A stretch of 64,000 nt of DNA from Tsukamurella ocularis. Lineage in GTDB: Bacteria > Actinomycetota > Actinomycetes > Mycobacteriales > Mycobacteriaceae. The position numbers and the translations under genes are program-made. Location: assembly GCF_024807615.1 (NCBI RefSeq), contig NZ_JANUCJ010000002.1, positions 1 to 64,000 of the forward strand, given 5' to 3'. A model generated the notes under the pieces. It was not told where the DNA came from. It saw nothing but the letters and a program-made list of their open reading frames with translations, and searched no databases. This document shows, in pieces, positions 27,958 through 62,152 of the stretch; position 1 is the stretch's first letter; every line of letters begins with the position of its first letter.

Positions 27958-28680
27958 ATCGTCGTCCTGGGTGCGAGCGAACCGCACCGGCGTCGCTGCC
28001 TCCAGCTTGGAGTGCCACATCGCTGAGACGCGTAGCGGGACGCCCCGCGAGCATGGCCAGGCGCGGAGCCCCTTGAGCGTGATCCGTCGCTGCCCGGCCG
28101 CGGCGTGCTGCCGGTCGAACTCGGCCCAGCCAACGCGTTGGTCTCGTCGTCCTAGCGCACATCGACCAGGCCGCGCTCGTCCCTGGGACGCCGAGCGCGA
28201 GCGCCTCGCGGCCGCGGGCCTCTTGAGTGCCACGGGCGGGCGTAGGGGAGGCGTCGATGAGCAGCGCGGCTTACCTCGCCAGGTGGCCGCATCTACGATT
28301 TCTCGGGACGCATTTGAAGGCCAAACTGCAGCGGTCAGGCGCAGTTGCGCTACCCGGCATGGAGCGGTCACAAGCGACCCATGGGTTTGCCGCCAGCCCG
28401 TCAAGACTCGGCTGTACCGGGCTGGACGGCCTGATCTTACTGAACGCCGTCCCTGGGCCCCGATTGCTACGCGAGCATGTTCAGTCTCGTTTGGGCTCAG
28501 GCTCTACTCCGACGGCGTAAGGAGGGCAGTTAGTCGCAGGTTCGAATCTTGTCAGCGCGATGTTCTGCCCAGCGCCTATGCGCTGGTCGTGGTCGCTTGT
28601 GTCGACTACGTGCCAAACATTGCGCTTCAATCAGCACTCTTCAGGGCCTGGATCCATGCTTTGATTACGTGGTGGACAAG
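27958..28680. other. Non-coding or decayed stretch of the island
   Basis: Several overlapping open frames exist on both strands, the longest about 260 codons, but none gives a plausible protein: they are Arg/Ser/Ala-rich, lack ribosome-binding sites and compete with each other. The stretch probably holds decayed genes. The clear signal inside it is the partial tRNA-Pro copy near its right end. Confidence 0.5.
28533..28560 (+). repeat. Degenerate copy of the tRNA-Pro 3' end (att-like)
   Basis: These 28 bases match the last 28 bases of the tRNA-Pro gene (27085–27112) at 25 positions, covering the T arm and the 3' acceptor strand. Integrases that insert at tRNA genes leave such copies at the far end of the element. 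The three mismatches suggest an old or imperfect site. No intact integrase is seen between the two copies. Confidence 0.7.
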
Positions 28681-30024
28681 ATGGTCGACGCGACTCTCAG
28701 CGGAACGATGGGGCATTTTTGGCTAGACCTGACGACCTACAATCGAGCAGACATCTCGTGGCAAGGGCATGCTGAGCAACGAGACGACTATCTTGCCATC
28801 CGGACTATCAAGCGACCCGACGAGGGACTCCCGCAGCCTGGGGCGACTCCTATGCCGGAGGCTGTTTACGGCGCTACCGAGGTCGGCGGTACGGTTGCCT
28901 ATGACATTCGAAGTGTTCCCGAGAACAGCGTGCTCGGGGGTAGCAAGATTTCTGTGCGCTCGTATCTCGCGCGAGGATTTGTCGTCGGGATTGATCCGGG
29001 CGAGCTAGCCAGCGCGAAAGTTGTCTCGATCACTGCGCAATTCTACGGGCTCGTCATGTGGAGCGGCGCGAAGGGGGCTCACATTGACTACGGCAAGCAG
29101 CCAGACGGTCGGGTTAACACGATGACCTACACGGTCCGGCGGGTTACTCCGGTTACTGCGAAGATAAGCGGCGGGCGGACCTTGGAGATTGGTGTCAGTT
29201 GGGAAGCAAGTGAGCGTCAGTTCGATCAGTTCTCCGCGTCTACGCCACTTACATTTACGATCACCAGGTCGAGGCCCGGGACTTGGTACGAGCTCATCCG
29301 ACCGGTGATTGCCTTTCAAGATTTGATCAACCTGGCCTACGACGCATTCGTTCCGTGCGTCGGCGGGTCGCTCGTTCCTCATTTCCGAAAGGATGTTGAG
29401 TCAAGCAAGGGTGCGCTCTGGAGTAATTCCCTAATGGATGTTCCCGACGGGGTAAAGCGTGCCTCCGAAAAGTCGGAGCGACCGGCATTCTCCCTGGGGG
29501 CAATTGGTGGGGCGCCGGGAGTGCGGCGCTGGCTGCTGTTGGCTGAGGCGCATCCCCGGGCGGTGGGGCCGTTGACCAGTGCCCGACGATTCGGCATGAC
29601 GACAGTCGAAGTCGAACTAATGAACATCGCAGTCGCGATCGAGTACTGGGTCGGAGCGTGCAAAAAGGAGTCGAGCAGTAGGCCGAAGTGGACCAAGGTC
29701 AGGAATAAGGGCTACGCCGAATTGCTGGCCATGCGCGTCGGCTCAGAGTTCCGGAGGTTTGTCGGCGGCGACGAGTGCAAGTGGGCGCGCCTGTTCTGGG
29801 ACCGCTACACCGCACTCAAACACAACCCGCTGGTGTCCTACGACTCATACGAGATTTCAACTTTGATGAGGGGCGGCCGGATCCTCCTTATGTGTGCTCT
29901 GCTGAACCGGGCGGCTGGCTCGAAAGCGCCCACTAGGTGGATCTGTCAGTCCGCCCAGTTCTATCATCTAGGCGAGCGGACTCGGGACCTCATGGCGAGC
30001 AACCCGAGGCTATACAAGCGATAA
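28681..30024 (+). CDS. ApeA-like protein with C-terminal HEPN domain, candidate phage-defence ribonuclease
   Basis: The N-terminal half opens with GTMGHFWL, like the G-x-FWL start of ApeA N-terminal domains, and continues as beta-rich sequence to about residue 260. The C-terminal third is helical and holds DRYTALKHNP, where R375 and H381 form an R-x5-H motif of HEPN ribonucleases. ApeA proteins are single-gene abortive-infection systems. The GC content is well below that of the surroundings, and the gene sits just beyond the partial tRNA copy. The frame is open from 28549. The ATG at 28681 was chosen as it precedes GHFWL, but two GTGs just upstream are possible. Family assignment rests on motif reading only. 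Confidence 0.55.
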   Translation: MVDATLSGTMGHFWLDLTTYNRADISWQGHAEQRDDYLAIRTIKRPDEGLPQPGATPMPEAVYGATEVGGTVAYDIRSVPENSVLGGSKISVRSYLARGFVVGIDPGELASAKVVSITAQFYGLVMWSGAKGAHIDYGKQPDGRVNTMTYTVRRVTPVTAKISGGRTLEIGVSWEASERQFDQFSASTPLTFTITRSRPGTWYELIRPVIAFQDLINLAYDAFVPCVGGSLVPHFRKDVESSKGALWSNSLMDVPDGVKRASEKSERPAFSLGAIGGAPGVRRWLLLAEAHPRAVGPLTSARRFGMTTVEVELMNIAVAIEYWVGACKKESSSRPKWTKVRNKGYAELLAMRVGSEFRRFVGGDECKWARLFWDRYTALKHNPLVSYDSYEISTLMRGGRILLMCALLNRAAGSKAPTRWICQSAQFYHLGERTRDLMASNPRLYKR

Positions 30025-49057: not shown

Positions 49058-51247
49058 TCAGCTGTTCGCGGCCTTGAACTCGCGACGGCGCGCATGCAGG
49101 ATCGGCTCGGTGTAGCCGTTCGGCTGCGTGCCACCGAGCAGGATCAGGTCCTTGGCGGCCTGGAAGGCGATGTTGGTGTCGAAGTCCGGCGCCAGCGGGC
49201 GGTAGTCCGGGTCACCGGCGTTCTGCTGGTCAACGACCGGCGCCATGCGCTGGAGCGCCTCGATGACCTCGTCCTCGGTGACGACGCCGTGGCGCAGCCA
49301 GTTCGCGAGCAGCTGCGAGGAGATGCGCAGGGTGGCGCGGTCCTCCATGAGGGCGACGTCGTGGATGTCCGGCACCTTCGAGCAGCCGACGCCCGAGTCG
49401 ACCCAGCGGACGACGTAGCCGAGGATCGACTGGGCGCTCTCGTCGAGCTCCTCGCGCTTCTCCTCCTCCGACCAGTTCGCGTTCGGCGCGAGCGGGATGG
49501 TGAGGATGTCGTCGACCGACGCGGGATCGCGCTTGGCGATCTCGTTCTGCACCTCGAAGACGTCCACCAGGTGGTAGTGCAGGGCGTGCAGGGTCGCGGC
49601 GGTGGGCGAGGGCACCCACGCGGTGGTCGCGCCGGCCTTGGGCTGGGCGATCTTCTGCTCGAGCATCGCGGCCATCAGGTCGGGCATGGCCCACATGCCC
49701 TTGCCGACCTGCGCCTTGTGCTGCAGGCCCGCATGCAGGCCGATGTCGACGTTGCTGTCCTCGTACGCGGGGTACCAGGTCTGTCCCTTGAGCTGGCCCT
49801 TGCGGACGATCGGACCCGCGACCATCGAGGTGTGGATCTCGTCGCCGGTGCGGTCCAGGAAGCCGGTGTTGATGAACACCACGCGATCGTTCGCGGCGGC
49901 GATCGAGGCCTTGAGGTTCACCGACGTGCGGCGCTCCTCGTCCATGATGCCGACCTTGAGCGTCAGCGCGGGCAGGCCCAGCAGCTGCTCGACGCGGGCG
50001 AAGATCTCCGCGGCGAAGGCCACCTCCTCGGGGCCGTGCATCTTGGGCTTGACGATGTACACCGAGCCACTGCGCGAGTTGCGGATGTCGCCCGACAGGC
50101 CGTGGATCGCGATGAGCGAGGTGACGATGCCGTCGAGGATGCCCTCGCCGATCTCCTCGCCGTTCAGCAGGATCGCGTCGGTGGTCATGAGGTGGCCCAC
50201 GTTGCGGACGAACAGCAGCGAGCGGCCGTGCAGCACCAGCTCGGAGCCGTCGACGGCGGTGTAGACGCGGTCCGGGTTCAACGTGCGAGTGAAGGTCTTG
50301 CCGCCCTTGCTGACCTCCTCCGCGAGGTCACCCTTGTTCAGGCCCAGCCAGTTGCGGTAGCCCACGACCTTGTCGTCGGCGTCGACGGCCGCGACCGAGT
50401 CCTCGAAGTCCATGATCGTGGTGACCGCGGACTCGACGAGCACGTCCTTGACGCCGGCGCGGTCGGTCGAGCCGATCGGGGAGGTGGCGTCGATCTGGAT
50501 CTCCAGGTGGAGGCCGTTGTGGCGCAGCAGGATGCCCGATGGGGCGCCCTTCTCGCCGGAGTACCCGACGAACGCCGCCGGGTCCGCCAGGCAGACCGAG
50601 GCGTCCTCGCTGGAGCCCGACGCACCCTTGACGGTGGCCAGCAGCTCGGTGCCGTTGATCCGGTACTCGACGACGTCGGCGTGCGAGCCGGACTCGAGCG
50701 GCACTGCCTTGTCGAGGAAGTCCTTGGCGAAGGCGATCACCTTGTCGCCACGGACCTTGTTGTAGCCCTTCCCCTTCTCCGCGCCGTCGGCCTCGGAGAT
50801 GGCGTCGGTGCCGTAGAGGGCGTCGTACAGCGAGCCCCAACGAGCGTTCGCGGCGTTGATCGCGAAGCGGGCGTTGAGGATCGGCACCACCAGCTGCGGG
50901 CCGGCGGTCGAGGTGATCTCGGTGTCCACGCCTCCGGTGGTGATCTCGCGGTCCTCGGGGACCGGCACCAGGTAGCCGATATCGGTGAGGAACTGCTTGT
51001 ACGCGGGGAAGTCGGTGATCTCACCGGGCGCGGCGGCGTGGTACTCATCGATCTTCGCCTGCAGCTCGTCGCGGGTGGACAGCAGCGCCCGGTTCTTCGG
51101 GACCAGATCTCCGATCAGTTGCGCGGCGCCCGCCCAGAAGGCGGTCTGGTCTACACCGGTGCCCGGAAGTGCCTCGTTATTGATGAAGTCGTAGAGGACC
51201 GTTGCGACCTCGAGGCCGGCGACGGATGTCCGGGCGGTGTCAACCAT
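49058..51247 (-). CDS. glcB: Malate synthase G
   Basis: Condenses glyoxylate and acetyl-CoA to malate in the glyoxylate bypass. The 729-residue length and TIM-barrel motifs fit isoform G. They include the glyoxylate-binding [14 protein letters not shown], the metal-binding [14 protein letters not shown] and [13 protein letters not shown] stretches, the [15 protein letters not shown] segment, and [23 protein letters not shown] near the catalytic Asp. The ATG at 51247 was preferred over a TTG four codons earlier because AAGGGG lies upstream and the protein then begins [14 protein letters not shown]. It faces the conserved Rv1837c position. Confidence 0.96.
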
Positions 51248-51288
51248 GAAGTACTTCAACCCCTTCGTAGCACGTGACTAGGTACGGA

Positions 51289-53013
51289 TCAGGTTACTCC
51301 GCGCGTGATCGCCGCCGACGTCGGGACCACCTGGCCGAAGTCCAGTTTCACGAGCTGGTCGGCGCGGTCGAAGTACCGGTCGTCGTGGGTGATCACCACC
51401 ACCGTCTTCCCGCGCGCCTTGAGGTCGGCGACGATCCGGTCGTAGAAGACGGCGCGGAAGCGGGGGTCCTGATCGGCGGCCCACTCGTCGAACAGGTACA
51501 CGGGCCGGTCCTCGAGCAGCGCGGTCAGCAGCGCGAGCCGCTTGCGCTGCCCCGTCGAGAGGGCGAGCGTCGAGAGCTTCCCGTCCTGCACCGTGACCGC
51601 GTGCGCCAGCTCCAGGTCGTGCAGCAGCCCGCGCACCCGGTCGTCCAGGTCGTCGGCCGACAGGCCCAGATAGTCGTCGAACAGGTGGAAGTCCGAGAAG
51701 ACCGCCGTGGTGTGCTGTCGGAACCACTCCAGGTTCTGCGGGCCGATCGGCTCGCCGCCGGCGCGGATCTCGCCGATCCGCGGCGCGTACAGCCCGCAGA
51801 TGAGCTTCGCCAGCGTCGACTTGCCGCTGCCGTTGCCGCCGACCACGAAGGTCACCTCGCCCGGGCGGAGTGTCAGGTCGACGGGACCGAGGCGGAAGCC
51901 GTGCGGCACGCCCGGTGGCGGACCCTGGGGAGGGTGCGGCGGCGGGCCGCCGGGACCGCCGCGCGGCGGGTGCCCGGGTCCGTGCGGGCCGGGAGGGGAT
52001 TCGGGGAGGTACTCGTAGCCGACGCCCCGCAGTTCGACGGTGCCGTCGCCGACGGGCCGCCCGTCGTAGGGGAGCACCGACTCGTCGCGCGGGGTTTCCA
52101 GCGAGAGGTCGAGGCCGCGGATCTTCGCCAGCGCGACATCGCCGCGCAGCAGGTCGGGGATGCGGTGCATCAGGCTCTGCATGGGCATCGACAGGAAGGT
52201 AGTGACCAGCACGTAGCCGATCATCGTCTCCCGCGGCAACTCCATCGCCCGGGCGAGGACGAACAGGATGACCACCATGGTGCCCAGCTGCAGCACCTGG
52301 CCCAGGGCTTGGCCGCCGGCGAACCGCGTGCCCGCGGCGACGTGCTGACCGCGCAGGTCCTCGGCCGTGCCCAACAGCTTGCGATCCAGGAAGTCGGTGC
52401 GCCGCGCGCGGTGCAGCTTCAGCTCCTTGACGCCGTGCGTGACCTCCTGGAAGGAGCCGATGAGGGCGTCGTCGAGCTCGCGGGCCCGGCGGTAGGTCTC
52501 CCGGACCCGGCGCAGGACAGTCTCCACACAGGCGATGCCGATGAGCGTGCCCGCCACGGAGACCGCGAACAACGTGCCGGACACCGTCGCGAGATAGGCC
52601 AGGGCGCCGATGATCGTCGCCAAGTCGATGCACAGTCCGGGAATGCCGGAAACGGCCATCGACAGCGACCGGACGTCCTCGGTGAGGGTCGCCAGCAGCC
52701 GGTGATCGCCGAGCCGCTCGATGTGCTCGAGCGGCGCGGCCAGCACCCGCTGGGAGAGCCGCGCCCGCAGCCGGTACACGGCGGCCTGCGCGAGGTGCAG
52801 CAGGATCAGCTGTGAGGTGACGCCCGCGATGACCACGACGACCGCGGTCAACACGAATTGGGTGACCGTCACCGTCGGCATCGGGCCCGGAGCCACCAGG
52901 CCGTTGATGAGCGTCAGGAGGTAGGCGTTCGCGCCGCCCGCGACCAGGCCCGCGATGACCGCCGCAGCGATCGCCGCGGGCGAGATCGAGAGCAGGAACT
53001 TGAAGAGCTTCAT
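51289..53013 (-). CDS. Cyclic-peptide-type ABC exporter (fused TMD–NBD)
   Basis: Six membrane helices (residues 1–310) are fused to an ATPase with Walker A GGNGSGKST (K398) and Walker B VYLFDEWAADQDP. The signature is replaced by LSTGQRKRLALLTALLE. That STGQRKR and DEWAADQDP pairing marks the PvdE/SyrD branch, which exports cyclic peptides, siderophore precursors or lipopeptides. A Pro/Gly/His-rich insertion of about 30 residues (near 345–375) sits at the start of the ATPase domain. It begins seven bases after the polyketide synthase stop, so it is the last gene of that operon and probably exports its product. Confidence 0.85.
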   Translation of the reverse strand: MKLFKFLLSISPAAIAAAVIAGLVAGGANAYLLTLINGLVAPGPMPTVTVTQFVLTAVVVVIAGVTSQLILLHLAQAAVYRLRARLSQRVLAAPLEHIERLGDHRLLATLTEDVRSLSMAVSGIPGLCIDLATIIGALAYLATVSGTLFAVSVAGTLIGIACVETVLRRVRETYRRARELDDALIGSFQEVTHGVKELKLHRARRTDFLDRKLLGTAEDLRGQHVAAGTRFAGGQALGQVLQLGTMVVILFVLARAMELPRETMIGYVLVTTFLSMPMQSLMHRIPDLLRGDVALAKIRGLDLSLETPRDESVLPYDGRPVGDGTVELRGVGYEYLPESPPGPHGPGHPPRGGPGGPPPHPPQGPPPGVPHGFRLGPVDLTLRPGEVTFVVGGNGSGKSTLAKLICGLYAPRIGEIRAGGEPIGPQNLEWFRQHTTAVFSDFHLFDDYLGLSADDLDDRVRGLLHDLELAHAVTVQDGKLSTLALSTGQRKRLALLTALLEDRPVYLFDEWAADQDPRFRAVFYDRIVADLKARGKTVVVITHDDRYFDRADQLVKLDFGQVVPTSAAITRGVT

Positions 53014-53020
53014 GGCGCGC

Positions 53021-54238
53021 TCATTCGCCGGCGGTCACGACGTCGAACAGGAAACCCTCCACGGTCACGCCGGGTGCGAAGGAGAAGGCCATGCCGGTCG
53101 ACGGTGCCCCGTCGGGCCCGGCACCGTCGGAGACCTGCACCAGGAGGCGTTCAAGGACGAACAGCAGCGAGACGCTGAGCATGTTGCCGTGCTCGGCGAG
53201 CACGTCCCAGCTCGTGCGCGACGCCTCGCCGGGCAGGCCCAGCGCCGCGGATGCGGACTCGATGATCTTCGGCCCGCCGGGGTGGATCGCCCAGTGCGCG
53301 ATGGCCTCCCGGCCCAGTCCGTTGCGGTCCAGCACCTCGTCGACTACCGGCGCGACGCCGTTCACGATGTACTGCGGCAGGGCCTCGGCCAGTTCGCACG
53401 TGATGCCGTTGGCGTTGACCCCGAGCACGATCCCGTCCTCGGCACCGTCGAGCAGGTGGGTGAAGGTGTCGCGCACGACGATCCGGCCGCCGGGGAGCGG
53501 GTGTCCGACCTCGCTGGCGCCGATGACGGCGGCGCCGCAACCGTCGGCGAAGAGGCTGGAGATCACCACGTCGTTCGGGTCACCCGAGAAGACGGCGTTC
53601 ACCGAGCTCAGCTCCAGGCAGATCATCAGCGACTTGCGGTCCGGGTGGGCACGCACGTAGTCGGTGGAGACACGCAGCGCGTTCATCGCTGCGGCGCAGC
53701 CCATGAAGTTGATGACCACGCGGCTGGTCTGCGGCGCGAGGCCGAGCGCGCGGATCACCGCGACGTCGACGCCGGGGGCGAGGAAGCCGGTGCTGGTGAC
53801 GAAGACCAACTGGCCGACGTCCTCGGGGGAGACCTCGTTCTCGGTACCGACGCGTAGGGCGCGGCGGGCGGTCTCGATCGCCAGCGGCGCGGCGTGCTCG
53901 TAGAACAAGTCCATGCGCTCGCGGATGGTGTCCGGGCGGGTGCTGAACTCCGCGAACTCCGGCGTGAGCGGGTCGATGGCGAGGTGCCGCTCGGCGACCT
54001 TCGTCTTGGCGTAGACGCGTCGGATCCGCTCGGCCTGCTTCGGGTCGTCGACCCGCGCGGCCACCCGGTCTGCGGACTCGGCCTGACCGTAGGTCTGCGC
54101 GGGCGAGCCGGTCGCGAGCGACTCGATCACCGCGACCGAGGTCGGCGGCGCGGGCGGGGCGCCCAGCCAGGTGCCGGGTGCGGGAAGCAGGGGGGCTGCG
54201 CCGTCGAGGGCAGGGGCGCCCTGGGGGGTGGCGTTCAT
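53021..54238 (-). CDS. Type III polyketide synthase
   Basis: A homodimeric chalcone-synthase-like enzyme that extends an acyl-CoA with malonyl-CoA units and cyclises it. The triad is C181 (INFMGCAAAMNALR), H319 (HWAIHPGGPKIIES) and N352 (EHGNMLS). The length of 405 residues is normal. The first 30 residues are Pro/Ala-rich. ATG 54238 was chosen because the AAGGAG overlapping the upstream TAA is six bases before it; the ATG at 54244 touches the site. The starter is unknown: the linked desaturase suggests an unsaturated fatty acyl chain, giving an alkyl-resorcinol or alkyl-pyrone. Confidence 0.9.
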   Translation of the reverse strand: MNATPQGAPALDGAAPLLPAPGTWLGAPPAPPTSVAVIESLATGSPAQTYGQAESADRVAARVDDPKQAERIRRVYAKTKVAERHLAIDPLTPEFAEFSTRPDTIRERMDLFYEHAAPLAIETARRALRVGTENEVSPEDVGQLVFVTSTGFLAPGVDVAVIRALGLAPQTSRVVINFMGCAAAMNALRVSTDYVRAHPDRKSLMICLELSSVNAVFSGDPNDVVISSLFADGCGAAVIGASEVGHPLPGGRIVVRDTFTHLLDGAEDGIVLGVNANGITCELAEALPQYIVNGVAPVVDEVLDRNGLGREAIAHWAIHPGGPKIIESASAALGLPGEASRTSWDVLAEHGNMLSVSLLFVLERLLVQVSDGAGPDGAPSTGMAFSFAPGVTVEGFLFDVVTAGE

Positions 54239-54244
54239 GGTCAT

Positions 54245-54250
54245 CTCCTT
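54245..54250 (-). promoter_or_regulatory. Ribosome site overlapping the desaturase stop
   Basis: AAGGAG on the minus strand begins inside the TAA stop of the desaturase gene and lies six bases before the polyketide synthase ATG at 54238. This decides the start and ties translation of the two genes together. Confidence 0.6.
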
Positions 54251-55895
54251 AAACCGTGCCGATGCCGGTGAAGCCCGCGACGACGTACGAACCGGACGTC
54301 TTGAGGGCCGCCGGCGAGAAGTGCTCGCGGAAGAAGCCGTGGCCCTGCTCCTGCGCGGGCCGGGCCTTACTGCCGAGGAAGGTGCTGACCTGGTCGGGCA
54401 GGCGATCGAAGAAGAAGCTGCGCCGGGGCAGCCACTCGACGCCGAACTTGGCGGCCTCCTCGGCCATCAGCTCCTCGGTGGCGATGTTGGCGAAGCCGCT
54501 GCGCTGGTAGGGCAGGACGTGGTGCACGCGGTGGCTCGACAGGCCGGCCGAGAGGAAGCAGTCGACGTACCGGTTGCCCGAGATCCACAGGTCGTAGGCC
54601 TGGTTGAGCTGGTTGACAGCCCAGTCCTCGGTCTCGACCTCGGGCAGGTCGTCGACATCGGTCTCGAAGTCGTGGCTCGCGACCACCAGGAAGGTACTCA
54701 CCCACAGCACGGCGACGAACTGCGCGACCCAGGCCCACACGTCGCCGAGGAACAGGAACAGGAGGAACTCGCCGATGAGCAGCGCGCGCATCGCGAAAGC
54801 GCCGATGAAGTGGGGGAGCGCGCCACGCAGCGAGCCGTACATGTCGGCGACGCCCACCTGGCGGGTGAGCTTGACGATCTCGAACAGCCGCATCGTCATG
54901 CCCGTCGCGGTGTGCCCGAACTTGTGCAGTGTGTGGATCGGGATCCGGTACCAGCGCGGGATGTCCATCATCATGGTGAAGACGTTCTTCTTGATGTCCA
55001 CCTCGCTCTGCGTGTGCGGGTGGTGCAGCAGTGCGTGGCCGTCGGCCGTCACGAAGGACAGCGCGACGTAGTTGATGTCGAAGGCGTTGACCAGCACCTT
55101 CGTCGCACCCTTCTGCTTGCGATGGATCGCGTAGTGGCCGAAACCCGCCAGCGAGCTGCGCAGGACGACCATGAGCAGCACGAACAGCCAGATCGGCATC
55201 CACGACGGGACGCTCAGGCGGGTGGCGATGACCGCGACGTAGGCGACGGCCAGTGCCGCCGCGACGACGTTGAACCAGCGGTCCATACGCTTCACGCGCG
55301 CCCTCATCGCCGGCTCGCGCAGCCGCGCCTTCACGGCGTGCAGCAGATCCGTCGGGTCGTCGAACCGATAGCGCGGGGTGTCGCGCCAACTGTCGAATCC
55401 ATCCTTGAAGAGGAAGGCGGGCGCATTGTTCTTGGGATGGACGTCTTCGACGCGGGCATCGCGATCGAGGGCGAACCGTTCCAGCATCTTTTCGACCTTT
55501 TCGGGATTCGCGTGATACGAACCGATGATCGACGTGATGTCACGATTCTTCGAGCGGCCGATGAAGAATTCCCCGCCCGGATGCTTGTTGATCCATTCCG
55601 AGAGATCGTAGGCACGGCCCTTATAGACCCACACGTTCGACAACTGCGGCCCCCCGCCGGGGCCGGGTTCCCGCCCCAGATCGCGGGGTCCGGGGTCGCC
55701 GCCCTCGGTATCGAAGTCGCGGCCGCGTGGGCCGGCAGGACGACGCCCGGGGTCGCGCTCATCGGAGCTGGAAGCACCGTCATGACCTGCGCCACCTCCG
55801 CGACCCGGGTCCGTGCCGCGCACGAGATCGCGGGGGCCAGGGTCAGCCGCACCGCGCTCCGACGGCACCGGTGGCGGGGTGGAATTGATCGACAC
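54249..55895 (-). CDS. Cytochrome-b5/fatty acid desaturase fusion
   Basis: A disordered Pro/Gly/Asp-rich tail (1–84) leads to a cytochrome-b5-like haem domain with H105 (KHPGGEF) and H128. The membrane desaturase part follows, with His boxes GHYAIH (H254, H258), HALLHHPH (287–294) and SSHRVHH (H455, H458, H459). The b5 fusion is the layout of front-end and sphingolipid desaturases, which take electrons through the attached haem. The substrate is probably an acyl lipid or acyl-CoA. The GTG start has AGGAGGAG eight bases upstream. It is the first gene of the three-gene operon. Confidence 0.88.
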   Translation of the reverse strand: MSINSTPPPVPSERGAADPGPRDLVRGTDPGRGGGAGHDGASSSDERDPGRRPAGPRGRDFDTEGGDPGPRDLGREPGPGGGPQLSNVWVYKGRAYDLSEWINKHPGGEFFIGRSKNRDITSIIGSYHANPEKVEKMLERFALDRDARVEDVHPKNNAPAFLFKDGFDSWRDTPRYRFDDPTDLLHAVKARLREPAMRARVKRMDRWFNVVAAALAVAYVAVIATRLSVPSWMPIWLFVLLMVVLRSSLAGFGHYAIHRKQKGATKVLVNAFDINYVALSFVTADGHALLHHPHTQSEVDIKKNVFTMMMDIPRWYRIPIHTLHKFGHTATGMTMRLFEIVKLTRQVGVADMYGSLRGALPHFIGAFAMRALLIGEFLLFLFLGDVWAWVAQFVAVLWVSTFLVVASHDFETDVDDLPEVETEDWAVNQLNQAYDLWISGNRYVDCFLSAGLSSHRVHHVLPYQRSGFANIATEELMAEEAAKFGVEWLPRRSFFFDRLPDQVSTFLGSKARPAQEQGHGFFREHFSPAALKTSGSYVVAGFTGIGTV

Positions 55896-55928: not shown

Positions 55929-56137
55929 GGTTGTGTAGACCTTCTCCGGTCACGCTAATCGATCACTGAAGGTGCGCTTGCCGCTACCGCCCAGTGTCTG
56001 ATTTGCCCGGAAGTGACGCCGGGGAATGCTTCGATCGACTCCGGAATTCATGCATACTTCATGGTGAGGGCGGGGCTTCCGCCCTTTTCATTCGGCCCCG
56101 GGCGGTTCCGCCCGGACAGATTCCAGGGGGGAACCCT

Positions 56138-56959
56138 ATGAACCTCAAGGCATCGCGGGCGGCTGTAGCGCTGCTCGCCGCCGGCGCGCTGGTACTCACC
56201 GGTTGCGCGGACAAGAAGACCGACGACACCGGACCTACGACCGGCACCGCCGCAGTGGCGAGCGGCGCCTCTGGCTCGCCGACGGCCGCACCCTCGGTCG
56301 ACGCGAGCGGCTTGCCGACCGTCCAGATCGTGCAGGACGCGGCCCTGGCCACCCGGGAGACCTACTCGGAGCACCTGACGCTCGCCGTCGACAAGGGGAT
56401 CCAGGGCCTGCCCGTCACCAGTGTCACCGGCGATATCATCTCGTTCAAGGACACCAAGCGCGTGGCCGCGCAGGGCGACGCCAACGTCCGCGTTCAGGAC
56501 AACTACGTGCAGACGAAGTTCGTCGTCATCGACGGCGTGATGTACGCCAACCTCGGCGGCGCCAAGTACCAGCCGATGGGCAAGACCGGTGAGAAGGGCG
56601 TCTACGACCCGGCGATCATCCTGGACCTGGAGAAGGGGCTCGCGAAGATCCTCGATTCGGTGCAGAACCCGAAGGTCGACGGCAAGGACACCGCGAACGG
56701 CCTCAAGACCGTCAAGGTCACCGGCACCGTCGCCACGCAGGTCCTCGACCCGCTGCTGCCGCAGATCACCGACATCGCCACCCGTGGCAACGCCGGAACC
56801 GCGCTGCCCATCACCCTGTGGATCGTCTTCGACCCGTCGGCGAACCCGCAGCCCAAGCCGAACGTCACGCGCATGGAGGTCAAGCTGAAGGAGCTGCCCA
56901 TCACGCTGAACCTCACCGAGTTCGGTAAGGACGTGAAGATCACCAAGCCCGCCACGTAA
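56138..56959 (+). CDS. LppX/LprAFG-family lipoprotein
   Basis: A lipobox (LVLTGC, C23) and a Ser/Thr/Ala-rich linker precede an LppX_LprAFG fold. Segments such as GDIISFKDTKRVAAQGDANVRV, VIDGVMYANLGGAKY and LPITLWIVFDPSANPQP fit that family. These proteins hold lipids in a hydrophobic cavity; LprG carries triacylated glycolipids and LppX carries phthiocerol dimycocerosates to the outer membrane. GGGGGGAA is a strong ribosome site. The gene is divergent from the desaturase–polyketide synthase operon. It may carry that system's lipid, but no direct proof is in the sequence. Confidence 0.88.
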   Translation: MNLKASRAAVALLAAGALVLTGCADKKTDDTGPTTGTAAVASGASGSPTAAPSVDASGLPTVQIVQDAALATRETYSEHLTLAVDKGIQGLPVTSVTGDIISFKDTKRVAAQGDANVRVQDNYVQTKFVVIDGVMYANLGGAKYQPMGKTGEKGVYDPAIILDLEKGLAKILDSVQNPKVDGKDTANGLKTVKVTGTVATQVLDPLLPQITDIATRGNAGTALPITLWIVFDPSANPQPKPNVTRMEVKLKELPITLNLTEFGKDVKITKPAT

Positions 56960-57010: not shown

Positions 57011-58009
57011 TCAGAAGCCCTTCGAGCGCAGGTACGCGCCCAGCGTCTCGACGCTGCCCGGCGTGCGCGGACCCTCGACCCAGCCCGCGTACGGGATCAC
57101 GACGACGTTGCCCTCGCGCACGGCGGTGGTGTTTGCCATCAGCGGCTGCGAGCGCAGCTGCGCGATCTTCGCGTCCGGGGTGTTCTCGGGGCCCACGCCG
57201 TAGTCGACGATCGCGATCACCTCCGGGTCGCGCTGCGCCGCCGCCTCCCAGGACGCGGTCGTCCACGAGTCGTCGAGGTCGGCGAAGACGTTCTCGCCGC
57301 CCGCGTTCTCGATGATCGCCTGCGGCGTGCCGGTCCGGCCGGACGTGAACGGGTCCGGGGAGGCGCTGTCGAACAGGAAGACCCGTGCCTTCTTCCCCGC
57401 CGGCGCGGAGGTCCGGACCCTGTCGATCCGGGCGCGGTACTCGGCGACCAGCTTCTCGGCGCGCTCCGGCACCCCGAACAGGGTCCCGAGATTCGTCAGG
57501 TCCGCGAACAGCGCGTCGAGCGGCGGCATGATGCCTCGCTTTGTGCTCCCGGTCTGGCGGCAGGCCTCGGTGAGCTGGTACGGCACCGCGCCGATCTCGC
57601 GGATCCAGTCCGGCGTCACGCCGGTCGTCTCCTTGAAGCCGTAGTTCCAGCCCGCAAAGACGAAATCGGGCCGCGCCGCCTGGATCGTCTCGCGGGTGAA
57701 GGCGGTGCCCAGGCTGGGGGCGCGGTCGAAGTCCGCCTTCCACGGCGAGGTGTTGTAGTCGACGTGCTTGCCGTCGTAGGTCGTGTACCCGACGATGCGG
57801 TCGGTCAGGCCCAGCGCGAACAGGATCTCCGCGGTTCCGGTGTCGTTGACCACCACCCGGCTGGGCGGGCCCGGCACCGTCAGCGGAGCACCGCAGTTGG
57901 TGACGGTGGCGGGCGCACCCGAGGACGCCGACGGTGCCGCCTCCTCGACAGTCGCACCGCAACCGGCGAGCAGGACGCCCGCGAGCAACACCAGGGGGAG
58001 TCGTTTCAT
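57011..58009 (-). CDS. btuF: B12/metal-chelate ABC transporter binding lipoprotein (BtuF-like)
   Basis: A lipobox (VLLAGC, C17) marks a surface lipoprotein. The mature part is a class III binding protein (FecB/BtuF fold) with SRVVVNDTGTAEILFALGLTDRIVGYTTYDG and the long backbone helix between the lobes. It starts one base after the ATPase stop and is the last gene of the set. The family serves iron siderophores or cobalamin; the cobalamin riboswitch ahead of the operon favours vitamin B12. Confidence 0.85.
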   Translation of the reverse strand: MKRLPLVLLAGVLLAGCGATVEEAAPSASSGAPATVTNCGAPLTVPGPPSRVVVNDTGTAEILFALGLTDRIVGYTTYDGKHVDYNTSPWKADFDRAPSLGTAFTRETIQAARPDFVFAGWNYGFKETTGVTPDWIREIGAVPYQLTEACRQTGSTKRGIMPPLDALFADLTNLGTLFGVPERAEKLVAEYRARIDRVRTSAPAGKKARVFLFDSASPDPFTSGRTGTPQAIIENAGGENVFADLDDSWTTASWEAAAQRDPEVIAIVDYGVGPENTPDAKIAQLRSQPLMANTTAVREGNVVVIPYAGWVEGPRTPGSVETLGAYLRSKGF

Positions 58010-58010
58010 G

Positions 58011-58787
58011 TCAGGTCCCTTCCGTCAGACCACTGTCGAAGATCACCTGGGGCACGCCCAGGCGCGGGTGGGGCAGCACGTGCGCCCCGATGTCGAAGTA
58101 GCGCCGCAGCATTGCGGGCGTGAGGATCTCCTCCGGAGTGCCGGAGCAGGCCAGCGCGCCCTCGGACAGCACGTACAGGCGGTCGCAGTACTGCGCCGCG
58201 AGATTGAGGTCGTGCAGCACCGCGATCACGGTGACGCCCAGGTCCCGGGCGGCGCCGAGCACCGCGAACTGGTGCCGCACGTCGAGGTGGTTGGTGGGCT
58301 CGTCGAGCACCAGCACCCGCGGCTCCTGCGCGAAAGCCCGGGCGATGAGCACACGCTGCGCCTCGCCGCCCGAGAGCGTGCCGAAGTCTCGCCGGGCCAG
58401 GTCCGCGGCGCCGGCGGCGGCGAGCGCACCGTCGACCGCCCGACGGTGCGCGGCGAGCGGGACGCCCCGGCGGCGGTGCGGCAGTCGACCGGTCTCGACG
58501 ATCTCGCGGGCGGTGAAGCCGATGTCGAAGGGAGCGTGCTGCATCACGGCCGCGACCTGCCGCGCGTTCTCCCCGAGGCTGATGGCTGTGACGTCCCGCT
58601 CGTCGACGGTGACGGTGCCCGTCGCCGGTCGCAGCGCCCGGTACGCGCACCGGAGCAGCGTCGACTTGCCGCTGCCGTTGGGGCCGACGACGCCGATGAA
58701 CTCGCCCGTGCCCGCGGTCAGCGAGATATCGTCGACGATCCGCTGTCCGCCCAGTTCGACGGAGACACCGCGGTACTCGACCCGCAT
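58011..58787 (-). CDS. btuD: ABC transporter ATPase for B12 uptake (BtuD-like)
   Basis: Walker A is GPNGSGKST, the signature is LSGGEAQRVLIARA, and Walker B is VLVLDEPTNHLD followed by the LHDLNLAAQYCDR His-loop, all typical of FecE/BtuD. The ATG overlaps the stop of the permease gene (TGATG), and the stop is one base from the binding-protein ATG. The frame is open far upstream inside the permease gene, but the ATG at 58787 opens the canonical N-terminal strand MRVEYRGVSVELGG. Confidence 0.92.
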   Translation of the reverse strand: MRVEYRGVSVELGGQRIVDDISLTAGTGEFIGVVGPNGSGKSTLLRCAYRALRPATGTVTVDERDVTAISLGENARQVAAVMQHAPFDIGFTAREIVETGRLPHRRRGVPLAAHRRAVDGALAAAGAADLARRDFGTLSGGEAQRVLIARAFAQEPRVLVLDEPTNHLDVRHQFAVLGAARDLGVTVIAVLHDLNLAAQYCDRLYVLSEGALACSGTPEEILTPAMLRRYFDIGAHVLPHPRLGVPQVIFDSGLTEGT

Positions 58788-59827
58788 CACGCGCTCCCGA
58801 CTGACCTGCGGCGCATGAGCGAGATGAACACCGGCACGCCGACCGCGGCGGTGATCGCGCCGAGCGGTAGCTCCTGCGGCGGCGCGACAGTGCGGGCCGC
58901 GATGTCGGCGAGCACGAGGAAGACCGCGCCCAACGCGGGCGCGATCACGAGGACCCGGCGGTGGTCGGCGCCCACCAGCAGCCGGGCGACGTGCGGTACC
59001 ACGAGCCCGACGAAGCCGATGGCGCCGCAGACCGAGACGATGATCCCGGTCATCGCTGCGGTGAGAACGAACAGAGCGGACCGGTAGCCGGAGGCCGAGA
59101 GTCCGACGGAGATCGCCACCTCGTCGCCGAGGGCCAGCGCGTTGAGCTTGCGCGCGCCGTACCGCAGCGTCACCAGCCCAAAAGCGACAGTGACTGCGAG
59201 CAGGGCCGTGGTGCGCCACGTCGAGGGGGAGAGGCTGCCGAACAGCCAGAACATGACGGTGCGGGCGGCGTCGCCGCGCGGCGCGAGGAAGACCAGGACC
59301 GTGGTTACCGCCGAGAAGCCGTAGGCGAGGGCGGTCCCGGTGAGGACGAGCCGCAGCGGGGTGAGCCCGCCTCCGCGATAGGCGACGAGGTAGACCAGCG
59401 CGGTCGCGGCGAGCGCGCCGAGAAAGGCCGCGGCGGGCAGCGCGTACAGGCCGAGGGTGCCGAAGACGCCGAACAGGGCCACCGTCGTCGCGCCGACCGA
59501 CGCTCCGGAGGAGATGCCGAGTACGTACGGGTCCGCGAGGGCGTTGCGGACCATCGCCTGCACCGCGACGCCGATCGCGCTCAGCCCCGCACCCACGATC
59601 GCGGCGCTGAGGACCCGCGGGATCCGCGAATCCGCGACGATCCGATAATGCGTGCCGTGCTCGGCGTCGATGGTGCCGCCCGTGAGGAAGGCCCAGACGT
59701 ACCGGGTCGAGTCCTGCCACGGGATGCGCACGGTGCCCAGCAACACGCCCAGCCACATCGCGGCGATCAGCGCGATCAACAGGCAGGCCAACAGCACTGC
59801 CACACGGCGCGACGAGACCACTCGCAC
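58787..59827 (-). CDS. btuC: FecCD-family permease for B12 uptake (BtuC-like)
   Basis: A 346-residue permease with about ten helices. Family stretches are RIPRVLSAAIVGAGLSAIGVAVQAMVRNALADPYVLGISSGAS and GAIGFVGLVVPHVARLLVG, where the ATPase docks. The GTG at 59827 was chosen because GGGGAG lies seven bases before it, within the riboswitch leader. It is the first gene of the permease–ATPase–binding-protein operon. Confidence 0.9.
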   Translation of the reverse strand: MRVVSSRRVAVLLACLLIALIAAMWLGVLLGTVRIPWQDSTRYVWAFLTGGTIDAEHGTHYRIVADSRIPRVLSAAIVGAGLSAIGVAVQAMVRNALADPYVLGISSGASVGATTVALFGVFGTLGLYALPAAAFLGALAATALVYLVAYRGGGLTPLRLVLTGTALAYGFSAVTTVLVFLAPRGDAARTVMFWLFGSLSPSTWRTTALLAVTVAFGLVTLRYGARKLNALALGDEVAISVGLSASGYRSALFVLTAAMTGIIVSVCGAIGFVGLVVPHVARLLVGADHRRVLVIAPALGAVFLVLADIAARTVAPPQELPLGAITAAVGVPVFISLMRRRSVGSA

Positions 59828-59854
59828 TCCGCGACTCCCCTCGGGTCGGTGAGC

Positions 59855-59874
59855 ACCGCCCGGCTCCGGGCGGT
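59855..59874 (-). promoter_or_regulatory. Expression-platform hairpin of the cobalamin riboswitch
   Basis: ACCGCCCGG (plus 59855–59863) pairs with CCGGGCGGT (59866–59874). It lies between the aptamer and the ribosome site of the permease gene, where a B12-dependent switch in pairing would control translation. Confidence 0.5.
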
Positions 59875-59880
59875 CGCGAG

Positions 59881-59995
59881 GGCAGGTATCGGGCTCGCAC
59901 GCATTGCGCGTGTCACCGTTGCGGGGCAGCCCCGGATTCGGACCGGGTTCCCTCTTACGCCGTGAGCTCGCGCTCACGGACCGTCGCTGGGTGGG
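59881..59995 (-). ncRNA. Cobalamin (AdoCbl) riboswitch
   Basis: Read on the minus strand, the core strings of the B12 element occur in order: AGAGGGAACCCGGT, GAATCCGGGGCTG, CCCCGCAACGGT, then GAGCCCGATACCTGCC at the 3' end. A GTGAGC...GCTCAC hairpin forms the 5' side. B12 binding should lower expression of the transporter that follows. The 5' boundary is approximate. Confidence 0.9.
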
Positions 59996-59999
59996 AAGT

Positions 60000-60896
60000 C
60001 TAGGCGGGGGATGCGGACATATCGGCGGCGGGGCGTCCGGCGGGCCAGGCGCGCACCACGGCGAGCAGGCGCTCGCGGATCGGGGTCGCCCGCTCGGCCA
60101 GCCCGATCTGCTGCCGCACGTACTCGCGGCGGCCCTCGGCCGTCTCGATCGCGATGGGCTCGAAGCCGTAGTCCGCGAGGTCGTACGGGCTCGCCCGCAT
60201 GTCCAGCTCTCGCGCGTCCCGGGCCACGTCGAAGGCGTCCGCCACCAGGTCCGACGGGGTGCCGGGCACCAGCTTGAACGCCCACTTGTAGAGGTCCATG
60301 CCGGCGTGCAGGCAGCCGGGCTGCTCGGAGCCGACCTGGGTCTCGCGAGTGAGTTCGACGGCATTCCGGGGCGCCGCGTCGGGGGTGAAGAAGCGGAAGG
60401 CGTCGTAGTGCGTGCACGTCAGCTGCCCCGCGCGGACCACCTCGTCGGTTCCGGCCGGGCCCAGACGAAGCGGCACCGGATGCCGCGCCTGATCGGCCTC
60501 GCGGTAGACCATCGCCCACTCGTGCAGGCCGAAACAGCCGAACACGGGCCGGCGCGCGGCCGTGGCCTCCAGGAGCCGCGCGACGTACTGCGCGGTGCCG
60601 GCGCGCTTGGCCAGCGCCGCCGGGTCCGGCCGGACCCGCGTGCCCTCGACGAGGTAGCCGCGCGCGCCGCTGAACTCGTCCGCCGCGCGCGGGCCGTCGA
60701 GCTCGGTCCCGAGGCCCGGGTGCCAGCGGAGCAGGTGTGCGGGGCGGTGCCCGTAGTAGGTGAACAGGAAGTCCCAGACGGGGTGCTTGTCGCCGCGCGC
60801 GGCCCGGCTGCGGTGCGCGTCGACGAACGGAGTCAGGCGATTACGGTGGGCTTCGGCGCGGGCCACCCACTCCGTGTCGGAGAGGATCACCGTCAT
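60000..60896 (-). CDS. Conserved protein, often annotated 3-methyladenine DNA glycosylase
   Basis: A 298-residue soluble protein with no membrane segment. Conserved-looking blocks are HPVWDFLFTYYGHRPAHLLRWHPGLG, FGCFGLHEWAMVYRE, THYDAFRFFTPDA and QPGCLHAGMDLYKWAFKLVPGTPSDLVADAF. Actinobacterial relatives are commonly labelled 3-methyladenine DNA glycosylase, but no AlkA or Tag catalytic motif can be seen, so the label is weak. The ATG overlaps the stop of the GGDEF gene by four bases, so the two are coupled. Confidence 0.75.
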   Translation of the reverse strand: MTVILSDTEWVARAEAHRNRLTPFVDAHRSRAARGDKHPVWDFLFTYYGHRPAHLLRWHPGLGTELDGPRAADEFSGARGYLVEGTRVRPDPAALAKRAGTAQYVARLLEATAARRPVFGCFGLHEWAMVYREADQARHPVPLRLGPAGTDEVVRAGQLTCTHYDAFRFFTPDAAPRNAVELTRETQVGSEQPGCLHAGMDLYKWAFKLVPGTPSDLVADAFDVARDARELDMRASPYDLADYGFEPIAIETAEGRREYVRQQIGLAERATPIRERLLAVVRAWPAGRPAADMSASPA

Positions 60897-62047
60897 GGGC
60901 GGGGTGTCCCGGGCGGCACTGCGGGGATGTAGTCGTCGCTGCGAGGAGCGGACCGACCGGAGAGGGCCACCCCGTCACCGGTCCGTTTGGCTTGGTACAT
61001 GGCGGAATCGGCGTCGGCGAGGATGCGGTCGAGGAGAGTCGTGCCGAGCCGAGGGCTCTCGTGCACGCTCACGCCGATGCTGGCCGCTACTCGGACGCCG
61101 TCGACCAGGGAGATCTCGGTGATCGCCACTCGGATCCGCTCCGCGAGTGCGAGGCAGTCCGCCGCAGGACGTCCGAGGACCAGCAATGCGAACTCGTCTC
61201 CGCCGAGTCGAGCGACGGTGGCGTCGTATTCGGCGCCGATGGCACGGAGTACTCGCGTCACGCGGATGAGTATGTCGTCGCCGGCGGCGTGGCCGTAGGT
61301 GTCGTTGACAGGTTTGAACCCGTCGAGGTCGATGACGAGGGCGCAGACCTGTTCTGCCGCGGATGCGCGCCGCATCACCCATGCCGCCCACGTAGTCCGG
61401 AGTCCTCGGCGGTTGAGCGCTCCAGTCAGCAGGTCGGTGCCCACTTCCGTGGTGTCCTGCCATGAGATGCAGAGTGAGAACTGCAGGGTCGTCGGCGCCC
61501 CGACGGTGGTGCAGGCCAGCACAGTCGCGGTCAGGGCGGCTGTGACGACGCCGTGCTCACCGCCGATCGCGACGACGACGGTGACGAGTGCGGCGAGGAT
61601 GAGGGCCGCGTTGAGCAGGAACGCCTGTGTGGTCAGCACGAGTGCCGCGAAGGTCGCGATCAAGGCGAAGCTGGCGAGACAGATCGCGGCGGTGAGCGGC
61701 TCGCAGAAGGCGGCGACCGAGTAGATCGCGGCGATCGACGAGGTGACGAACAGCACGGCCTCGCGCCGGCTGAGAGCGCCACCGAATTGCCACCGGATCA
61801 CCCAGTAGAGGGCGGTCACGGCTGCAGCGACGTGTGCTCCGACGAAGGCCGCACTGAGCGGACCGGATGCCAACATTCCCACGAAGATCAGGCAGAGCAG
61901 CAGTGCGCACGCGCTCACCACCGTCCGCACGACGCGCAACAGGGATCGGTTCTCTAGGTAGGTGATCCGCTCATCGTAGGTAGGGCCTCCGCGCCACCAT
62001 TCGGACGCGAGCTGCGCGAGCAACGTCCGGCCGTCGTCTCCTTCCAT
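60893..62047 (-). CDS. Membrane diguanylate cyclase (GGDEF protein)
   Basis: Makes cyclic di-GMP from two GTP. About six membrane helices (residues 40–195) are followed by a GGDEF domain. It starts with DLLTGALNRRGL, has the metal-binding DLDGFKPVNDTYGHAAGD, the signature GGDEF (282–286) intact, and a typical ADSAMYQAKRTG end. The product-inhibition RxxD site five residues before GGDEF is missing. ATG 62047 was preferred over a GTG three bases earlier. The membrane part should sense an unknown signal. Confidence 0.9.
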   Translation of the reverse strand: MEGDDGRTLLAQLASEWWRGGPTYDERITYLENRSLLRVVRTVVSACALLLCLIFVGMLASGPLSAAFVGAHVAAAVTALYWVIRWQFGGALSRREAVLFVTSSIAAIYSVAAFCEPLTAAICLASFALIATFAALVLTTQAFLLNAALILAALVTVVVAIGGEHGVVTAALTATVLACTTVGAPTTLQFSLCISWQDTTEVGTDLLTGALNRRGLRTTWAAWVMRRASAAEQVCALVIDLDGFKPVNDTYGHAAGDDILIRVTRVLRAIGAEYDATVARLGGDEFALLVLGRPAADCLALAERIRVAITEISLVDGVRVAASIGVSVHESPRLGTTLLDRILADADSAMYQAKRTGDGVALSGRSAPRSDDYIPAVPPGTPRP

Positions 62048-62152
62048 CACTGCACCCCCGATCCTTGGAGCGGAGCGTCCGCCGTGTGGTCCATCACTGC
62101 CGCCCTGGTATCGAGATCGGGCGCGTGTCGTCCTCTCGGCGACCAGGAGCGC

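What the first reader, a model, noticed from the sequence alone, without database searches (positions are those of the whole stretch)
51289..55895. Desaturase–type III PKS–cyclic-peptide-type exporter operon
Three minus-strand genes are packed with a stop/ribosome-site overlap and a 7-base gap. They encode a cytochrome-b5-fused desaturase, a type III polyketide synthase with an intact Cys-His-Asn triad, and a PvdE/SyrD-type fused ABC exporter. Neighbouring M. tuberculosis genes have no equivalent. The set could make and export an unsaturated alkyl-resorcinol or -pyrone lipid. The pairing of a type III PKS with an exporter of this peptide-linked class is unexpected.
Basis: partly seen in the sequence, partly recalled or inferred. 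Interest (0 to 1): 0.75.

Follow-up and report, generated by a model that had tools for sequence, protein, structure and literature searches.

The report
Exporter-bearing relative of mycobacterial Pks18 operon
A relative of the mycobacteria carries a conserved gene set that appears to build an unusual polyketide lipid, pump it across the inner membrane and hand it to a lipid-carrying lipoprotein; it matters because mycobacteria have a sister version of the same locus whose product is unknown.

Summary
The three genes are real, correctly placed and tightly packed: cytochrome-b5 desaturase, type III PKS with intact Cys-His-Asn, and an ABC exporter of the TIGR01194 ("cyclic peptide") class. They belong together. 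Among 401 family genomes, 49 of 50 with the exporter also have the PKS; the 50th has a contig break there. In 80 named loci the PKS is followed by the exporter (64), a sulfotransferase (15) or both (1, Mycolicibacterium arenosum). The claim that M. tuberculosis has no equivalent is wrong for two of the three genes: desaturase and PKS match Rv1371-Rv1372 (pks18), published as one operon with a sulfotransferase, Rv1373, and lprF lies beside it. What is unusual is the exporter in the sulfotransferase slot. It carries a Pro/Gly/His-rich insert absent from E. coli YojI, and no fifth gene family is shared by more than 4 of 20 loci. Best explanation: a long-chain alkyl-pyrone or -resorcinol lipid is made, exported by the ABC protein and received by the LprF-type lipoprotein. 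Product and transport are inferred, not shown. New variant of a known locus.

The parts
54249..55895 (-). Cytochrome-b5-fused membrane fatty-acid desaturase (548 aa, GTG start), Rv1371-type. Heme HPGG and the three histidine clusters HX3H, HX3HH and HX2HH are present. The first ~85 residues are a variable Pro/Gly/Asp-rich leader.
   Evidence: Pfam. In the 18-sequence alignment A4 these residues are invariant: H105/P106/G107/G108, H254, H258, H287, H291, H292, H455, H458, H459. AGGAGGAG precedes the GTG. 16 of 16 Tsukamurella genomes have it.
53021..54244 (-). Type III polyketide synthase of the Pks18 (Rv1372) group; the true start is probably the ATG at 54238.
   Evidence: Best PDB matches 7cb3 (5.6e-145) and 1ted pks18 (3.2e-138); triad C183/H321/N354 invariant.
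51289..53013 (-). Fused permease-ATPase ABC exporter of class TIGR01194, the Pks18-linked subfamily.
   Evidence: TIGR01194 380.3 bits against cut-off 286.2; 33% identical to E. coli YojI over 537 columns; Walker A GGNGSGKST, LSTGQR, FDEWAADQD.
51901..52008 (-). Pro/Gly/His-rich insert in the exporter's ATPase domain, just after the YEY that aligns with YojI FAY (about residues 336-371).
   Evidence: Absent from YojI; 24-176 residues in 81 distinct exporters, Pro 9-47, His 0-15; pLDDT below 50 at residues 339-371.
56138..56959 (+). LprF-type lipoprotein of the LppX_LprAFG family (273 aa, lipobox LVLTGC), transcribed divergently from the desaturase.
   Evidence: PF07161 140.8 bits; best PDB sequence match 4qa8 LprF, 8.8e-34, against LprG 1.3e-20 and LppX 0.009; best fold match LprF 4qa8, TM 0.84 by target length; found beside 76 of 80 named loci.
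55952..55970 (-). Conserved island TTCAGTGATCGATTAGCGT upstream of the desaturase; candidate promoter or regulatory element.
   Evidence: Alignment of the divergent intergenic region of 14 Tsukamurella sequences; one row (L079) was misplaced by its start and did not align there.
56044..56060 (-). Conserved island GAAGTATGCATGAATTC between the two divergent genes; candidate promoter element for the lipoprotein.
   Evidence: Same alignment.
49058..51259 (-). Malate synthase-like gene right downstream (neighbour, probably not part of the set).
   Evidence: Translation recognised by eye as malate synthase G (no family search). Matches at the same place in 13 of the fetched Tsukamurella loci (L067-L079) but not in L080 nor in the fetched loci of other genera.

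Best explanation
This is the Tsukamurella form of the Pks18 locus of mycobacteria, with a dedicated exporter. Proposed working: (1) the Pks18-type synthase extends a long-chain acyl-CoA with malonyl-CoA units to an alkyl alpha-pyrone or resorcinol; (2) the cytochrome-b5 desaturase puts a double bond into the starter chain or the product; (3) the ABC exporter moves this amphiphile across or out of the inner membrane at the cost of ATP; (4) the LprF-type lipoprotein takes it up on the outer face and carries it toward the mycomembrane, much as LprG works with Rv1410 for triacylglycerides. In Mycobacterium the exporter was replaced by a sulfotransferase. Shown here: gene identities, order, co-inheritance, replacement pattern, lipid-carrier fold. 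Inferred: product, substrate of the exporter, hand-over to the lipoprotein.
For: Order and spacing in the window. Exporter start lies -13 to +65 bases from the PKS stop, same strand, in 59 of 65 named loci that could be measured. Of 401 family genomes, 58 have the PKS (E<=1e-90), 50 the exporter (E<=1e-50), 53 the desaturase (E<=1e-60); 49 of 50 exporter genomes have the PKS, and the 50th (G003) has a contig end right after the desaturase and another inside the exporter. Outside the genus 34 of 34. In 345 other genomes of the phylum sample no exporter relative at E<=1e-45. Beyond the four gene types no family was shared by more than 4 of 20 loci. Lipoprotein in 76 of 80 loci; best match LprF by sequence and by fold. 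M. arenosum (L147) has lipoprotein-desaturase-PKS-exporter-sulfotransferase in one direction. In the PKS tree the sulfotransferase loci are one clade (17 rows, 100/99) beside exporter-bearing mycobacterial rows. Pks18 makes long-chain pyrones and the Rv1371/2/3 operon is co-transcribed (PMC13141999); O-methylated alkyl pyrones were seen in M. marinum biofilms (PMC8730385).
Against: TIGR01194 relatives with known cargo export peptides (YojI is annotated as microcin J25 efflux). The exporter model (mean pLDDT 72.8) matches general ABC exporters, lipid and peptide types alike, so the fold does not choose a cargo. The lipoprotein is divergent here and in 23 of 76 loci, so it is not on the same transcript. 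L126 and L057 have exporter copies without it. No metabolite or expression data. Five family genomes have a PKS relative (about 55%) alone.
Confidence: 0.6

Rival explanations
1. The exporter is a self-protection or detoxification pump: it removes reactive or membrane-damaging intermediates or by-products of the PKS rather than delivering the finished lipid, and the lipoprotein works separately.
For: The exporter is co-inherited with the PKS, and the related YojI is annotated as a microcin efflux protein. In most Mycobacterium loci a sulfotransferase stands in its place; conjugation and efflux can be alternative ways to deal with a phenolic compound.
Against: The lipid-carrier lipoprotein is conserved beside the set in 76 of 80 loci, which fits delivery better. 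M. arenosum keeps both sulfotransferase and exporter.
Confidence: 0.2
2. The exporter moves a peptide or another unrelated molecule and is only co-transcribed with the lipid genes.
For: The family name and the known cargoes of YojI, PvdE and SyrD (the last two recalled; TIGR01194 membership).
Against: No gene type other than the four (with the sulfotransferase as alternative) is shared by more than 4 of 20 loci, and the family shared by 4 is a short-chain dehydrogenase. At E<=1e-50 the exporter subfamily was not seen without the PKS in 401 genomes, apart from the contig break in G003. The shared neighbours were not screened one by one for small peptide genes under 100 codons.
Confidence: 0.1
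3. The PKS and desaturase make an inner-membrane lipid; the ABC protein is a flippase that only balances it between the two leaflets, with no onward transport by the lipoprotein.
For: Type III PKS lipids replace membrane phospholipids in Azotobacter cysts (passage in PMC5916927); the best fold matches of the ABC model include the lipid flippase MsbA.
Against: The LprF-type lipoprotein has the fold of extracytoplasmic lipid carriers and is nearly always beside the set.
Confidence: 0.1

Closest known systems
rv1371/2/3 operon of M. tuberculosis/BCG, next to lprF (PMC13141999; lprF:Rv1371 interval in PMC9363015)
   Same: b5-desaturase followed directly by a Pks18-type synthase; an LprF-type lipoprotein beside it; tight gene spacing
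   Different: Third gene is a sulfotransferase (Rv1373) there and an ABC exporter here; lipoprotein divergent here; here the downstream neighbour is malate synthase-like
M. marinum mmar_2189-2193 cluster (PMC8730385)
   Same: desaturase then type III PKS (MMAR_2190, an ortholog of pks18 according to PMC5916927)
   Different: followed by two sulfotransferase genes and an O-methyltransferase; no exporter named in the passages seen
TIGR01194 exporters: E. coli YojI (compared here), PvdE, SyrD (recalled)
   Same: fused permease-ATPase, FDEWAADQ motif in the module exporters, above the TIGR01194 cut-off
   Different: 33% identical to YojI, below the YojI-type equivalog cut-off (374.3 of 604 bits), extra Pro/Gly/His-rich insert, linked to a PKS and not to a peptide locus
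LprG with Rv1410 (triacylglyceride transport; abstracts of PMC10576003, PMC4709180) and LppX with DrrABC/MmpL7 (PMC8427324)
   Same: an LppX_LprAFG lipoprotein encoded with, or needed together with, an inner-membrane transporter
   Different: the transporter here is a fused ABC exporter of another class, and the cargo would be a type III polyketide lipid

Membership tests
Pks18-type type III PKS | Cys-His-Asn catalytic triad | tested here: met
   C183, H321, N354 invariant in 15 sequences; aligned to 1ted and 7cb3
Pks18-type type III PKS | Acyl-tunnel residues T144 and A148 of Pks18 (roles recalled) | tested here: met
   Aligned T152 and A156: A156 invariant, T152 invariant; Pks18 C205 is Ser here, as in 7cb3
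Pks18-type type III PKS | Makes long-chain alkyl alpha-pyrones | not testable with these tools
   Needs an enzyme assay
rv1371/2/3-type operon | b5-desaturase directly upstream of the PKS | tested here: met
   79 of 80 named loci above 300 bits, the 80th (L091) cut by the contig end
rv1371/2/3-type operon | Sulfotransferase as third gene | tested here: not met
   Exporter instead; no match to the sulfotransferase query in the window stretch or in the Tsukamurella loci
rv1371/2/3-type operon | LprF-type lipoprotein beside it | tested here: met
rv1371/2/3-type operon | Co-transcription | not testable with these tools
   Gaps of 4 and 7 bases fit; no terminator-like site between the genes on the minus strand, one inside the desaturase at 54433-54416; sigma-70 scan found 0 promoters
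TIGR01194 cyclic peptide export ABC transporter | Score over the curated cut-off | tested here: met
   380.3 against 286.2 bits; six other module exporters tested 374.5-419.3 apart from YojI
TIGR01194 cyclic peptide export ABC transporter | Encoded with a peptide product gene | tested here: not met
   No fifth gene family in more than 4 of 20 loci, that one a short-chain dehydrogenase; ORFs under 100 codons not examined
YojI (NF007813 equivalog) | Score over cut-off 604 | tested here: not met
   374.3 bits; E. coli YojI itself 1053.5
LprF within LppX_LprAFG | Family score, lipobox and LprF as nearest solved member | tested here: met
   PF07161 140.8 against 24; LVLTGC; 4qa8 best by sequence and fold

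The most novel reading that the evidence does not exclude
A complete, dedicated export line for a type III polyketide lipid: a distinct subfamily of 'cyclic peptide' ABC exporters that has changed cargo to an alkyl-polyketide and works with an LprF-type lipid carrier. It would be the ABC counterpart of LprG-Rv1410. In the Mycobacterium lineage the exporter was exchanged for a sulfotransferase through an intermediate like M. arenosum that has both, so the exporter-bearing genera show what LprF, Rv1371 and Pks18 do together.
Probability: 0.45. Interest if true: 0.75.

Novelty: new variant of a known kind. Interest (0 to 1): 0.55.

Why it matters
LprF is called a lipoprotein of yet-unknown function (PMC8427324, passage), and the product of the Rv1371/2/3 operon could not be identified in a 2026 study (PMC13141999). 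A conserved set in easily handled genera that ties an LprF-type lipoprotein, a Pks18-type synthase, a desaturase and one exporter together makes a shared function directly testable there. It would also widen the cargo range of a transporter class named for peptides, and NCBI's name 'cyclic peptide export ABC transporter' would mislead annotation of these genes.

Tried and rejected
Rejected: 'no M. tuberculosis equivalent'. Rejected: chance adjacency. Rejected as informative: exporter fold search, which matches lipid and peptide exporters alike, and the sigma-70 scan (0 found, 0.3 expected; terminator-like sites 5 found, 2.0 expected). The exporter tree does not resolve the place of the two full-length mycobacterial exporters, so it neither supports nor contradicts co-inheritance; L131 and L152 were dropped as short, six loci (L088, L090, L096, L097, L128, L150) for lack of an N-terminal BLAST match, and duplicate sequences were merged. 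Conserved-motif counts: Walker A GGNGSGKST was found in 111 of 115 extracted exporters (named and unnamed loci overlap); the four without are L025 and L152 (short frames) and L079/L085 (Tsukamurella sp. PLM1, frame broken in that assembly). L079/L085 is nevertheless among the 81 used for the insert lengths. In the neighbour clustering exporter and sulfotransferase fell into one cluster of stop-to-stop frames; by tag it holds 17 exporters and 4 sulfotransferases (20 loci, one with both). Literature: ten searches of open-licence PMC papers; in the listings and passages seen no paper describes the exporter version. Subscription papers and preprints were not searchable.

What was seen of each paper: PMC13141999 parts 1-3 of 5; PMC5916927, PMC8730385, PMC9363015, PMC3087520 and PMC8427324 passages only; PMC10576003 and PMC4709180 search listing with start of abstract. 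Recalled, from no call: PvdE and SyrD cargoes, the roles of Pks18 T144/A148/C205.
Full report
WHAT IS THERE. The three minus-strand genes stand as described: desaturase 54249-55895, type III PKS 53021-54244, ABC exporter 51289-53013. The desaturase carries a cytochrome-b5 domain and a membrane desaturase domain; its heme motif HPGG and the histidine clusters H254-H258, H287-H291-H292 and H455-H458-H459 are invariant in 18 homologues. The PKS has an intact C183/H321/N354 triad and is nearest, among solved structures, to a mycobacterial enzyme (7cb3, 5.6e-145) and to Pks18 (1ted, 3.2e-138). The exporter is a fused permease-ATPase above the cut-off of TIGR01194 (380.3 against 286.2 bits), 33% identical to E. 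coli YojI. An AAGGAG overlaps the desaturase stop codon; it is best spaced for the second ATG of the PKS, 54238, so the PKS is probably 405 aa. Seven bases separate PKS and exporter. No terminator-like site lies between the genes on their strand; one lies inside the desaturase, and the sigma-70 scan found nothing.

A FOURTH MEMBER. On the + strand at 56138-56959, 242 bases from the desaturase, lies a lipoprotein gene (lipobox LVLTGC) of family LppX_LprAFG. By sequence its nearest solved relative is LprF (4qa8, 8.8e-34), then LprG (1.3e-20) and LppX (0.009). A predicted structure (mean pLDDT 83.9) also matches LprF best (TM 0.84 by target length), then LprG and LppX. LprG has been solved with a bound glycolipid (PIM) and with triacylglyceride (titles of 3mha and 4zra). 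Two blocks of the divergent intergenic region are conserved across Tsukamurella.

WHO HAS IT. The genus is Tsukamurella (names). Of 16 genomes of the genus, 16 have the desaturase, 16 the exporter (some in pieces) and 15 the PKS; in the 16th, G003, one contig ends right after the desaturase and another ends inside the exporter. In 401 genomes of the family, 58 have the PKS at E<=1e-90, 50 the exporter at E<=1e-50 and 53 the desaturase at E<=1e-60, each in 6 of 31 genera. The overlap exporter-PKS is 49 of 50 and 34 of 34 outside the genus; all three are in 48 genomes. The hypergeometric probability is about 1e-40 outside the genus, but genomes are related, so it is only a guide. Exceptions: G003 (contig break); G070, which has exporter and a PKS with an internal stop and no desaturase; five genomes with a PKS relative of about 55% identity alone; four with desaturase, PKS and no exporter. 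In a sample of 346 genomes of the phylum only the own genome had an exporter relative at E<=1e-45. TIGR01194 scored over its cut-off in 12 of 21 relatives, all of them Tsukamurella, in 0 of 8 genomes of other families, and in 1 of 14 control genomes.

THE THIRD SLOT. A scan of named genomes gave 113 relatives of the PKS, of which the best 80 were kept. All 80 have a gene of one of two kinds after the PKS: exporter only in 64, sulfotransferase only in 15, both in one. The script labelled ten of the sulfotransferase loci 'none' because the match overlapped the PKS end; one search gives the frames. The 15 sulfotransferase-only loci are all titled Mycobacterium. The exporter loci are titled Tsukamurella, Gordonia, Nocardia, Williamsia, Antrihabitans, Mycolicibacterium or Mycobacteriaceae, plus two titles that do not fit their place in the tree (a Kitasatospora record grouping with Williamsia, and a 4.7-kb 'Acidobacteriaceae' MAG contig grouping with Tsukamurella sp. 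8F). Mycolicibacterium arenosum (L147) reads lipoprotein, desaturase, PKS, exporter, sulfotransferase in one direction, the last two overlapping. In the PKS tree (89 rows) the 17 sulfotransferase rows form one clade (100/99), whose sister (98/86) is made of M. arenosum and two exporter-bearing mycobacterial rows, all inside one mycobacterial group (100/100). The simplest history is an exporter-bearing ancestor, one gain of the sulfotransferase and then loss of the exporter; the tree is midpoint-rooted and does not prove the direction. One genome (G282) has both kinds at two places (L056, L057).

SURROUNDINGS. The lipoprotein is within about 500 bases of the desaturase in 76 of 80 named loci, co-directional in 53 and divergent in 23. 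Of the four misses, L091, L142 and L144 are cut by contig ends; L126 (Antrihabitans) is a real miss, but that genome (G072) has a second copy of the set (L044) with the lipoprotein. Outside these genes nothing is widely shared: across 20 chosen loci the PKS and desaturase occur in 20, exporter or sulfotransferase in 20, the lipoprotein in 19, and the next family, a short-chain dehydrogenase, in 4. Frames under 100 codons were not included. In the core Tsukamurella loci a malate synthase-like gene follows the exporter, but not elsewhere in the fetched loci.

A MARK OF THE EXPORTER SUBFAMILY. Compared with YojI, the module exporters carry an insert after the first strand of the ATPase domain: 24 to 176 residues (median 86), with 9-47 Pro and 0-15 His, in 81 distinct sequences over 540 aa, one of them from a frame-broken assembly. 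In the window it is about 36 residues, predicted disordered. Its role is unknown.

WHAT IS KNOWN. In M. tuberculosis/BCG rv1371 (desaturase homologue), rv1372 (pks18) and rv1373 (sulfotransferase) are co-transcribed; a knock-out and complemented strains differ in some lipids, SDS survival and macrophage infection, and the molecule was not identified (PMC13141999, parts 1-3 of 5 seen). A GWAS paper lists the interval lprF:Rv1371 (passage), which places lprF beside the operon. M. marinum has desaturase, PKS, two sulfotransferase genes and an O-methyltransferase in a row, and O-methylated alkyl pyrones were found in its biofilms (passages). One paper listed Rv1371 to Rv1376 as possible horizontal transfer (passage). 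LprF is called of unknown function (passage). So the biosynthetic pair is known; the exporter version was not described in anything I saw.

INTERPRETATION. Shown: identities, order, co-inheritance, exchange of exporter and sulfotransferase, carrier-type fold of the lipoprotein. From published work on Pks18 and these families: a long-chain alkyl pyrone is the likeliest type of product. Inferred: that the desaturase acts on this lipid, that the exporter carries it, and that the lipoprotein receives it. The strongest argument for the export reading is that this exporter type was found nowhere without the PKS in the genomes searched, together with a lipid-carrier lipoprotein. The strongest caution is that exporters of this class with known cargo move peptides and that the predicted fold cannot tell cargoes apart.

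Noticed in passing
window 27256-30024 (GC 0.61-0.64 around 27-31 kb): A low-GC stretch in a ~70% GC window; the ORF 28549-30024 has ApeA N-terminal (44 bits) and ApeA-like HEPN (33 bits) domains, as in the ApeA anti-phage protein (function recalled). Possible acquired defence island.
   Followed up: partly
L130 494-3778 and L147 3070-6168: Gordonia amarae and Mycolicibacterium arenosum share the four-gene run upstream of the set (DUF2520 protein, pantoate ligase, aspartate decarboxylase, type III pantothenate kinase), i.e. the same insertion neighbourhood in two genera.
   Followed up: partly
L080 / L150 (Tsukamurella sp. 8F) and L142/G006: These copies are only about 61-63% identical in the PKS to the other Tsukamurella, group elsewhere in the PKS tree, and L080 has no malate synthase-like neighbour: a second lineage of the set in the genus.
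   Followed up: partly
L056 and L057 (genome G282): One mycobacterial-type genome holds both versions, one with sulfotransferase and lipoprotein, one with exporter and without lipoprotein.
   Followed up: no
L065 (genome G070): Apparently decaying copy: PKS with an internal TAG and short frame, no desaturase match, exporter intact.
   Followed up: no
L060-L064: A related PKS (55-57% identity) without desaturase, lipoprotein or exporter in five genomes; in L060 the neighbours are a short-chain dehydrogenase and an MFS protein.
   Followed up: partly
window 54249-55895, first ~85 codons: The desaturase has a long Pro/Gly/Asp-rich N-terminal leader whose length varies widely between genera.
   Followed up: no
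window 57011-60364, minus strand: Iron/F420-0-type ABC importer genes: periplasmic binding protein, FecCD permease and ATPase frames, followed by a GGDEF protein at 60893-62050.
   Followed up: no
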